Below are positions 3,158 through 7,388 of a stretch of 35,231 bases of DNA, piece by piece. The stretch lies in contig JAJDNL010000210.1 in assembly GCA_022340745.1 (NCBI GenBank), positions 1 to 35,231 on the forward strand, in the 5' to 3' direction. Below the pieces are notes generated by a model. The model did not search any database and was not told the DNA's origin. It was given only the letters and a program-made list of their open reading frames with translations. The translations under genes and the position numbers were made by a program. Origin of the DNA: Deltaproteobacteria bacterium. GTDB lineage: Bacteria; Desulfobacterota; Syntrophobacteria; BM002. Position 1 is the first letter of the stretch. Every line of letters begins with the position of its first letter.

Positions 3158-4513
<1,356 letters not shown>

Positions 4514-4571
4514 TTATGTTTCAATGGGCAATGATACATGCACATTGAGAAATGACAAATGGCGCGTAGCG

Positions 4572-5741
4572 CTACAGTCCCGCTTTTTCCTTCAGTTCGT
4601 CGGCTTTGTCAGTATGTTCCCAGGTGAAATCGGGATCATTGCGACCAAAGTGCCCGTAGCAGGCGGTCTTCTTGAAAATCGGTCGCAGCAGCTTCAGGTG
4701 GCTGATCATATTAGCCGGTTTGAAACTGAAGGTATCACGCACGATTTCCACCAGACGCTCAGGTGCGATTTTGCCGGTGCCGAACGTATCTATCATCAAG
4801 CTCACCGGCTCTGCCACTCCGATACAATAGGCAATCTGCACCTCACACTTGTCTGCCAGCCCTGCGGCAACAATGTTTTTGGCCGCGTAGCGGGCCATGT
4901 AGGAGCCGCTCCGGTCCACCTTGGAAGGATCCTTACCTGAAAAACAACCACCACCGTGGCTGCCCTGGCCACCATAGGTATCCACGATGATTTTGCGTCC
5001 GGTGAGACCACAATCACCCATGGGTCCACCGATGACAAAACGACCCGTGGCATTGATGTAGTATTTGGTCTGATCGTCCAGCATATCTTCAGGGATCGCC
5101 TTGCGAATCACCTCTTCAATGATTCCCTCCCGCAGGGTATCGTACTTCACCTGGGGTATATGCTGGGCTGCCACCACCACGGTGTGAACCCTTTTGGGAC
5201 TACCGTTGTCATATTCCACGGTGACTTGCGACTTGCCGTCGGGGCGGAGAAAGTCCAAGGCTCCACTCTTGCGAGCTTCCGCCAGACGTTTGGTGATCCG
5301 GTGGGCGTAGTAGATGGGCATGGGCATGAGAACCGGGGTCTCGCTGCAGGCAAAGCCGAACATCAGCCCCTGGTCTCCGGCGCCCTGCTCTTCGAAAAGA
5401 CCTTCGCCTGCGGTGACTCCCTGGGAGATATCCGGTGACTGCTTGTCGATGGAAGTCAACACCGCACAGGTCTCCCAGTCGAATCCCATCCCCGAGTTGT
5501 TATAGCCGATCTCCTTGATGGTTTCTCTAACAATCTGCGGCATATCCACCCAGGTGCTGGTGGTGATCTCCCCGGCAATAATGGCCGTACCGGTAGTAAC
5601 CATGGTCTCGCAGGCAACTCGACATTGTTTGTCCTCGGCCATGATGGCGTCCAGAATAGAATCAGAAATCTTATCGGCTATTTTGTCCGGGTGCCCTTCC
5701 GTGACCGATTCAGAAGTAAATAGATAGTTGGTTGTAGACAT
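4572..5741 (-). CDS. metK: S-adenosylmethionine synthetase
   Basis: [76 protein letters not shown]. Confidence 0.97.
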
Positions 5742-5857
5742 GGAAAACGCCTCCTTATTTCAACTTACAGCTATGAGCTTGTCAGCTTCAGAAGTGCCTT
5801 TGCTCAACCGCAAACTGCATATAGTGCAGCAAGTTTAACCTATTATGAAAAATTAGC

Positions 5858-5915
5858 TAGCCCGGATACTCACGAATTGCCTGTTTCGACGGCAATGGAT
5901 GAAAGATCCGGGCTA
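5858..5915. repeat. REP/MITE-like palindrome with TAGCCCGGAT termini, copy 1
   Basis: TAGCCCGGATACTCACGAATTGCCTGTTTCGACGGCAATGGATGAAAGATCCGGGCTA: terminal 10-bp inverted repeat plus inner ATTGCC/GGCAAT stem. Confidence 0.75.
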
Positions 5916-6752
5916 ACCTTCATCTGTGCTTTTCCCCGACTCACCACTTTGTCCTGACTGTCCCGCCTCTGATGGCGGGGGGTCTACCTGCCCTGAACTT
6001 TCCTGCCCTGATCCTGTCGAAGGGGTCGCATGGGTCGAAGTGGGGGCCTTGGCTTCCAGCTCTGAAATTTGCCTAGCAAGTTCTGCATTTCTCGCATTGC
6101 GCTGTCTCCGGCCAAAGGGGAACTGGGGCACGTTTTTTTCCGGTTCAACAACACCACCCGAGATCAGGAGCTTGAACGCCTCTTCCACGCTCATGGCCAA
6201 AGGGATCGTCTCTTTCTCTGGCAACACCAGAAAAAATCCTGAGGTGGGATTAGGTGTCGTTGGAAGAAAAATGCTGAGCATCTCGGTGCCCACTTGCTCC
6301 TTGATCTCCCCCGATGTCCGTGCGGTCACGAACGCCAAGGAGTAGACCCCCTTTCTGGGATATTCCACCAGAACAACCCGCTTGAATGCATCATGAGCGT
6401 CACCGAAGATCGCCAGAATAAGCTGCTTTACCGCTACATAAAGGGGTCGCACCAAAGGGATCTTGGAAACCACGTACTCGCCGAAGTCAACTACCCGTCG
6501 TCCAACGTAGTTCTTCACCAGAACCCCGGTTACCAGCACCACCGTAACAAATAATACCAGCCCGAGACCCGGAATCTTGAGGGGAAGATAAATTTCAGGA
6601 TGAAATCTTTGGGGGATAAAGCCGAGAGCTCGGTCCATCAGCTTCAGAATGGCTGAGATCACAAAAATAACCGCGCCCAATGGGAGGATGACGAGGAGGC
6701 CGGCAAGAAAGTAGCCGCGAATTATGGATCTAATCCAATAAATGAATCTCAT
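5913..6752 (-). CDS. DUF502 family membrane protein
   Basis: RGYFLAGLLVILPLGAVIFVI..., KIPLVRPLYVAVKQL, FLPTTPNPTSGFFLVLPE typical of DUF502; low-complexity Ser/Gly/Gln tail. Confidence 0.88.
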   Translation of the reverse strand: MRFIYWIRSIIRGYFLAGLLVILPLGAVIFVISAILKLMDRALGFIPQRFHPEIYLPLKIPGLGLVLFVTVVLVTGVLVKNYVGRRVVDFGEYVVSKIPLVRPLYVAVKQLILAIFGDAHDAFKRVVLVEYPRKGVYSLAFVTARTSGEIKEQVGTEMLSIFLPTTPNPTSGFFLVLPEKETIPLAMSVEEAFKLLISGGVVEPEKNVPQFPFGRRQRNARNAELARQISELEAKAPTSTHATPSTGSGQESSGQVDPPPSEAGQSGQSGESGKSTDEG

Positions 6753-6759
6753 GTTCTGG

Positions 6760-7131
6760 TCATCTGCTGGTCATCGCTATCACCTGCCGAGATCGATTGT
6801 TCTCGTCTACCAGTATGACCTTCGGCTGGTGGTCTGCCAACTCCTCTTCATCCAGCAAAGCGTAAGTGGTTATGATGATCAAATCACCTGGTTGGCCTTT
6901 GCGAGCAGCAGCGCCGTTGAGGCAGATTTCCCCGGATCCTTCGGGCCCAACTATGGCATAAGTGTCAAAGCGTTCCCCGTTGGAGAGATTATAAACCCCC
7001 ACCTGCTCGTACTCATCGATATCTGCCTGAATCATGAGGCTTTGATCGATGCTCAGGCTACCCTCATAATCCAAGCACGCAGCCGTAATCCGAGCCCGAT
7101 GTATTTTGGCTTTCAGAAAAATACGCTGCAT
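6760..7131 (-). CDS. panD: Aspartate 1-decarboxylase
   Basis: MQRIFLKAKIHRARIT...DYEGSLSID with the Gly-Ser self-processing site, NGAAARKGQPGDLIIITTY. Confidence 0.96.
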   Translation of the reverse strand: MQRIFLKAKIHRARITAACLDYEGSLSIDQSLMIQADIDEYEQVGVYNLSNGERFDTYAIVGPEGSGEICLNGAAARKGQPGDLIIITTYALLDEEELADHQPKVILVDENNRSRQVIAMTSR

Positions 7132-7207
7132 AGCCTGATCTCCTCCGTGTCTACAAAATTTTTCCTTCCATTCCAGTGAACTCGGACACGGTAACCAGGC
7201 ATGTAAA

Positions 7208-7353
7208 AAGCCTCCAAGACGGCTGTCCAGAAGGCTTAACCACTTTCCGGATCTGGTTGAGACATTGACCGCGTTTGCGTAGGCTTAATCGACTGGCTCA
7301 CCACCGTCTCAGTCCACTAGATGGATCCAAGCGGATTATGCTGTCATTGTAAC
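7208..7353 (-). promoter_or_regulatory. Candidate cis-regulatory leader RNA of panD with intrinsic terminator
   Basis: Between a sigma70-like promoter and panD. Minus-strand RNA has nested stems GGAUC/GAUCC and UGAGAC/GUCUCA, then a terminator hairpin AAGCCUUCUGGACAG-CCGUCUUGGAGGCUU-UUU (7208-7237). Confidence 0.5.
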
Positions 7354-7359
7354 CTATTA

Positions 7360-7388
7360 CGTATACCACGAACACCATCTAACGTCAA
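7360..7388 (-). promoter_or_regulatory. Sigma70-like promoter of panD
   Basis: Minus strand TTGACG-17 bp-TATACG. Confidence 0.5.

What the first reader, a model, noticed from the sequence alone, without database searches (positions are those of the whole stretch)
7203..7388. panD leader with promoter, nested stems, terminator and a duplicated terminator arm
TTGACG-17-TATACG precedes a ~220-nt leader. The RNA has GGAUC/GAUCC and UGAGAC/GUCUCA stems with small bulges, then a terminator AAGCCUUCUGGACAG/CCGUCUUGGAGGCUU-UUU. The word UUAAGCCU occurs twice (7281-7290 and 7231-7240 on the reverse strand), so the upstream copy could compete for the terminator's AGGCUU arm, a classic attenuation layout. 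The known 'pan' RNA motif is reported upstream of pantothenate genes including deltaproteobacteria, so this may be a member, a divergent version or something new.
Basis: partly seen in the sequence, partly recalled or inferred. Interest (0 to 1): 0.68.

Follow-up and report, generated by a model that had tools for sequence, protein, structure and literature searches.

The report
Pan-RNA attenuator before panD
The stretch before the vitamin-B5 gene panD in this Desulfobacterota genome carries a real but overlooked single-hairpin member of the 'pan' RNA family, built as a switch that stops transcription early, and the same hairpin in related genomes points to an unexpected replacement for the standard vitamin-B5 enzyme PanB.

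Summary
The panD leader is real and is a single-hairpin member of the pan RNA motif (RF01749). The hairpin, minus strand 7334-7304, has 11 of 11 pairs and both bulged A's. It is missed by Rfam's cut-off (25.5 against 36.2 bits), probably because that model holds two hairpins. A model trained only on other families finds it at 45.2 bits, and finds just one other site in this genome. Promoter, hairpin and terminator are conserved in 11 of 11 leaders.

About half of 395 sampled phylum genomes have the hairpin; in 95 of 96 loci examined the first recognised gene downstream is panB, panC, panD or hxlB. Most leaders carry a terminator whose 5' arm is complementary to the hairpin's 3' base, and this covaries (0/5000 permutations). 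The panD leader has lost this and instead can pair the hairpin's 3' arm with the terminator's 3' arm.

Unexpectedly, the genome's other pan hairpin precedes an operon of hxlB, an HPS/RraA fusion and panE. That fusion and PanB never co-occur (0 of 24 against 343 of 371 genomes), suggesting a PanB replacement.

The parts
7383..7388 (-). promoter -35 (TTGACG)
   Evidence: read directly; TTGAC invariant in 11 of 11 panD leaders
7360..7368 (-). extended -10 (TGGTATACG), 17 nt from the -35; start of transcription expected near 7353 (inferred)
   Evidence: TGnTA invariant in 11 of 11 leaders
7304..7334 (-). single pan hairpin CCG-CUUGG-A-UCC-(AUCUAGU)-GGA-CUGAG-A-CGG, 11 pairs and two bulged A's
   Evidence: Rfam RF01749 25.5 bits; model R2 built without this family 45.2 bits, whole-genome E 6.8e-13; phylum-wide pair counts
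7304..7312 (-). pan 3' arm CUGAGACGG, candidate antiterminator strand in this leader
   Evidence: 9 contiguous pairs with 7222-7214, duplex -12.7 kcal/mol
7208..7237 (-). intrinsic terminator stem-loop AAGCCUUC-U-GGAC-AGCC-GUCU-U-GGAGGCUU
   Evidence: 12 of 12 pairs in 11 of 11 leaders; found by the terminator search
7205..7209 (-). terminator U-tract (its first two U's also close the stem)
   Evidence: read directly
7214..7222 (-). CCGUCUUGG in the terminator, a mimic of the pan 5' arm CCGCUUGG
   Evidence: 8-pair core 98.9% paired over 11 leaders, slid versions 27-58%; shuffle p 0.003-0.04 in all 11
7168..7183 (-). post-terminator segment GAGUUCACUGGAAUGG, able to pair with the pan loop and 3' arm
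   Evidence: 14 pairs, 90.9% of cells paired, 3 pairs with compensatory change, covariation score reached by 3/500 shuffles; mostly lost in G011 (4 of 14 pairs)
7141..7146 (-). Shine-Dalgarno sequence GGAGGA
   Evidence: read directly
6760..7131 (-). panD, aspartate 1-decarboxylase, 123 aa
   Evidence: PF02261 4e-48, TIGR00223 above cut-off

Best explanation
This is a cis-acting transcription attenuator of panD: promoter, then one pan hairpin near the 5' end of the RNA, then an intrinsic terminator, then panD. Proposed working: when the pathway product is plentiful, a regulator (more likely an RNA-binding protein than a metabolite bound directly) clamps the pan hairpin, the terminator forms and transcription stops. 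When the hairpin is not clamped, its 3' side pairs with part of the terminator and RNA polymerase reads into panD. In most of the phylum the antiterminator is the hairpin's 3' base plus the next nucleotides (ACGGAAGG) pairing with the terminator's 5' arm (CCUUCUG-like). In the panD leader of this lineage it is the pan 3' arm CUGAGACGG pairing with CCGUCUUGG in the terminator. Shown by sequence: the hairpin, its family, the terminator, conservation, the gene association, and covariation of the common antiterminator. Inferred: that termination is regulated, the signal, the direction of the response, and the rewired antiterminator of this particular leader.
For: Rfam pan hit at the right place. 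Model R2, built from 28 hairpins of other families, finds exactly two sites in this genome, the panD leader and the hxlB-HPS/RraA-panE operon. Hairpin 11/11 and terminator 12/12 pairs in 11 of 11 leaders. 204 of 395 phylum genomes carry the hairpin at E up to 0.05. First recognised gene downstream in 96 fetched loci: panB 59, panC 27, hxlB 8, panD 1, and one contig that is cut with a weak panB match at its end. On 89 distinct hairpins 99.6% of cells pair, 5 pairs show changes on both sides and 8 cells do where shuffles give 1.1 (0/500). Intrinsic terminators detected in 78 of 95 leaders. Hairpin 3' base x terminator 5' arm: own duplex -12.5 against -10.9 kcal/mol when swapped between 36 families, 0/2000; with G+C controlled 0/5000, control segments not significant. 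This leader and L133 (a related operon, pan-panC-panD-DUF502-metK) lack that pairing (p 0.78 and 0.96) but have the two strongest 3'-arm pairings of 78 by shuffle test.
Against: No experiment: no transcript, termination or binding data. The rewired antiterminator has only one-sided changes within the family, is weaker in G006 and G011, and needs most of the pan hairpin opened, which costs about 10-13 kcal/mol. Competing pairings exist: AUCCGGARAG with the terminator's 5' arm and the post-terminator helix. RNAalifold prefers the post-terminator helix over the pan hairpin. These pairings were picked after looking at many.
Confidence: 0.75

Rival explanations
1. The leader works mainly on translation: the segment after the terminator (CCGUGUCCGAGUUCACUGGAAUGG) pairs either with the pan 3' half or, through CCGUGUC x GACACGG, with the Shine-Dalgarno region, so that the pan hairpin sets ribosome access.
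For: Post-terminator helix 90.9% paired with 3 compensatory pairs; preferred by RNAalifold; CCGUGUC/GACACGG keeps 6-7 of 7 pairs in 10 of 11 leaders.
Against: A strictly conserved intrinsic terminator lies in between; the pairing is mostly lost in G011; phylum-wide, the terminator is the common partner.
Confidence: 0.15
2. The hairpin sequence is a DNA operator for a transcription factor of pantothenate genes, and the terminator is a constitutive attenuator or the end of an upstream transcript.
For: It is an imperfect palindrome close to a promoter; the genes form a regulon.
Against: The two bulged A's and a U-G pair kept in 87 of 89 distinct sequences make sense in RNA, not in a DNA palindrome; the loop varies widely; the hairpin lies downstream of the promoter; its 3' base covaries with the terminator.
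Confidence: 0.06
3. One reading: the upstream UUAAGCCU copy is the antiterminator of a new RNA unrelated to pan.
For: The word does occur twice in the window.
Against: Only 61% of pairs kept, no compensatory change, hardly better than slid versions; the pan hairpin identity is clear.
Confidence: 0.03

Closest known systems
pan motif, Rfam RF01749 (Weinberg et al. 2010, PMC2864571)
   Same: Stem with two highly conserved bulged A's; upstream of panB, panC or aspartate-decarboxylase operons; reported in three phyla.
   Different: One hairpin instead of the usual tandem pair, so below Rfam's gathering score (25.5 against 36.2; only 3 of 20 phylum loci pass). Adds a terminator and a covarying antiterminator, which the main-text passage read here does not mention, and a panB-less operon among its targets. 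The paper's supplements were not read.
Transcription-terminating riboswitches and protein-controlled attenuators
   Same: Hairpin that shares nucleotides with an antiterminator, followed by an intrinsic terminator and the regulated gene.
   Different: The 31-nt hairpin has no conserved loop, junction or pseudoknot that I could see, so a bound protein is at least as likely as a metabolite; the signal is unknown.

Membership tests
[quoted passage not shown]
   Both A's and 11 of 11 pairs in the window and in 10 of 10 relatives
pan motif (RF01749) | Upstream of panB, panC or aspartate decarboxylase operons | tested here: met
   Upstream of panD here; 87 of 96 loci in the phylum precede panB, panC or panD and 8 precede hxlB-HPS/RraA, the last contig being cut
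pan motif (RF01749) | Conserved pairing by covariation in relatives | tested here: met
   5 of 11 pairs with changes on both sides, 99.6% paired, 0/500 shuffles
pan motif (RF01749) | Rfam gathering score (36.2 bits), an operational cut-off of a two-hairpin model | tested here: not met
   25.5 bits; the model's first hairpin has no counterpart here (a 24-position stretch of it shrinks to 7 nt, which overlap the promoter). Not counted as a defining biological feature.
pan motif (RF01749) | Tandem arrangement (said of most, not all, pan RNAs) | tested here: not met
   One hit per locus in 96 of 96 loci at E up to 0.001
Terminator-type attenuator or riboswitch | Intrinsic terminator between sensor and gene | tested here: met
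Terminator-type attenuator or riboswitch | Antiterminator exclusive with both sensor and terminator | tested here: inconclusive
   Met for the phylum-wide set; in this leader a different, conserved but not covarying pairing
Terminator-type attenuator or riboswitch | Binding of a metabolite or protein that shifts the balance | not testable with these tools
   Needs in-line probing, binding or transcription assays

The most novel reading that the evidence does not exclude
The pan RNA regulon exposes a PanB-free route to vitamin B5. In genomes without panB, the pan hairpin controls an operon of hxlB (6-phospho-3-hexuloisomerase) and a fused hexulose-6-phosphate synthase/RraA-type aldolase, in this family followed by panE. 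The synthase domain, run backwards, would release formaldehyde, and the RraA-type aldolase domain would join it to 2-ketoisovalerate, giving ketopantoate without folate; PanE would reduce it to pantoate.
Probability: 0.5. Interest if true: 0.85.

Novelty: new variant of a known kind. Interest (0 to 1): 0.62.

Why it matters
The pan motif was described in 2010, and no validated ligand or mechanism for it was found in the open-access library searched here. A covarying antiterminator across 36 families says how it most likely acts (premature termination) and gives exact bases to mutate. A 31-nt single-hairpin model finds it in about half of the sampled Desulfobacterota genomes, where Rfam's two-hairpin model passes few. 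Because the hairpin marks vitamin-B5 genes so faithfully, it also nominates a replacement for the missing PanB enzyme, which can be tested directly in a laboratory E. coli panB deletion strain.

Tried and rejected
UGAGAC/GUCUCA nested stem: 0-4 of 6 pairs in relatives. Folding-energy signal for the whole leader: none. Other Rfam families in the window: none at gathering score; weak eukaryotic snoRNA and lncRNA matches taken as chance. A second pan hairpin making a tandem in this leader: none found. Pan hairpin on panC of this family: none found by pattern and none among the strong hits of the whole-genome model search. In-frame stop codons in the HPS/RraA gene of G013 and G053: they lie at the third codon of the aligned stretch, before a second plausible start, so taken as trivial. 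Literature on a PanB replacement by HPS/RraA or on a pantothenate or CoA riboswitch: no relevant paper beyond the original pan description and one genome that lists it; subscription journals not covered. One count on the hairpin plus terminator failed for a structure of wrong length; the counts stand in.

Full report
WHAT IS THERE. panD (6760-7131, minus strand; PF02261 and TIGR00223) is preceded by a leader of about 220 nt. On the minus strand the order is TTGACG (7388-7383), a 17-nt spacer, TATACG (7365-7360), a 31-nt hairpin (7334-7304), a terminator (7237-7205), GGAGGA (7146-7141) and ATG. Close relatives are metagenome-assembled Desulfobacterota (titles). In 11 of 11 panD leaders of the family TTGAC and TGnTA are invariant, the hairpin keeps 11 of 11 pairs and the terminator 12 of 12. 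The energy of the whole leader is ordinary, so the case rests on comparison.

IDENTITY. Rfam's pan model (RF01749) hits 7370-7300 at 25.5 bits, below its cut-off of 36.2. The alignment shows why: that model holds two hairpins, and only the second has a counterpart here. The second matches fully: CCG-CUUGG-A-UCC, loop, GGA-CUGAG-A-CGG, with both bulged A's. 12 of 13 genomes of the order have a hit with that model, and in the 11 panD leaders of this family the hairpin sits about 200 nt upstream of panD. A single-hairpin model from this family (R1) finds hits in 204 of 395 genomes sampled from the phylum at E up to 0.05. I worked with 96 such loci. The first recognised gene downstream is panB in 59, panC in 27, hxlB in 8 and panD in 1; the last contig is cut and has a weak panB match at its end. 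On 89 distinct hairpins 99.6% of cells pair and five pairs have changes on both sides, which no shuffle reached. To avoid circularity I built a second model (R2) from 28 hairpins of other families only: it finds the window hairpin at 45.2 bits and, in the whole genome, exactly two sites.

HOW IT LIKELY WORKS. An intrinsic terminator was detected between hairpin and gene in 78 of 95 leaders. The bases at the 3' foot of the hairpin plus the next few (typically ACGGAAGG) are complementary to the terminator's 5' arm (typically CCUUCUG). Swapping terminators between 36 families weakens the pairing from -12.5 to -10.9 kcal/mol; no permutation in 2000 matched the real pairs, nor in 5000 after removing the effect of G+C and length, while control segments showed nothing significant. 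Single examples are telling: in L162 the foot is ACGAAAGG and the terminator CCUUUCGU; in L148 GACGGGAG and CUCCCGUC. The foot (CGG) is shared with the basal helix of the pan hairpin, so clamping the hairpin should block the antiterminator and let the terminator form. That is the standard logic of an attenuator; the direction and the signal are inferred.

THIS LEADER IS A VARIANT. In the window the AAGG is gone and the common pairing is weak (p 0.78). Instead the terminator carries CCGUCUUGG, a mimic of the pan 5' arm, which pairs with the pan 3' arm CUGAGACGG over nine bases. Of 78 leaders, this one and L133 have the strongest such pairing by shuffle test and are among the four with the weakest common pairing. 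L133 heads pan-panC-panD-DUF502-metK in another family of the class, and the window has pan-panD-DUF502-metK-ahcY, so the two leaders look orthologous. Within the family the eight-pair core is 98.9% paired, slid versions 27-58%, but it changes on one side only, so this is a candidate, not a demonstrated helix. A further pairing of the pan loop and 3' arm with a segment after the terminator shows some covariation and could add translational control.

THE SECOND SITE. The genome's other pan hairpin (contig C270, 7749-7718 minus) precedes hxlB, a 438-aa fusion of hexulose-6-phosphate synthase and an RraA-type aldolase domain, and panE. PanB (PF02548) is missing from 12 of 13 genomes of the order, the 12 that have Rfam pan hits, while PanC is present in 12 of 13. 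Over 395 phylum genomes the fusion (E up to 1e-80) occurs in 24, PanB in 343, and never together (Fisher p about 3e-24; the 24 fall in five families, so independent events are fewer). Pan hairpins precede hxlB in four of those families. The RraA domain aligns to the aldolase 3noj with its Arg-Asp pair kept (that this pair is catalytic is from memory). I therefore propose that the fusion makes ketopantoate in place of PanB. Against it: G002, G004 and G005 have neither enzyme, the chemistry is inferred, and 28 sampled genomes lack both. No paper on this was found in the library searched.

VERDICT. It is a single-hairpin variant of a known, still unexplained RNA family. The new points are the covarying antiterminator, the rewired form before panD, and the link to a PanB-free operon.

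Noticed in passing
Own genome G000:C270 (L053), 7749-4147 minus: Second pan hairpin, upstream of hxlB - HPS/RraA fusion - panE; the leader has its own terminator and the common antiterminator pairing (GGGAAGGC with GCCCUCUC).
   Followed up: yes
395 phylum genomes: HPS/RraA fusion and PanB are mutually exclusive: 0 of 24 against 343 of 371 genomes; 28 genomes lack both.
   Followed up: partly
G002, G004 (single-contig assemblies) and G005: Have PanC and PanD with the pan leader but neither PanB nor the HPS/RraA fusion, so the source of ketopantoate there is unexplained.
   Followed up: no
window 3158-7131: panD, a gene called here DUF502-like (name from memory, not scanned), metK and ahcY lie in one direction behind the pan leader; the order is kept in relatives and, up to metK, in L133 (with panC), so the leader may also influence S-adenosylmethionine genes.
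   Followed up: partly
L214, L215, L218-L220, L223-L230, also L167 and L169: In several families the model matches only positions 3-29: the outermost two pairs of the pan hairpin are absent or changed, which is where the antiterminator overlaps.
   Followed up: no
hxlB leaders of this family: A short hairpin (CCCCUUGUGGGGG-like) sits just upstream of the pan hairpin, between promoter and pan hairpin.
   Followed up: no
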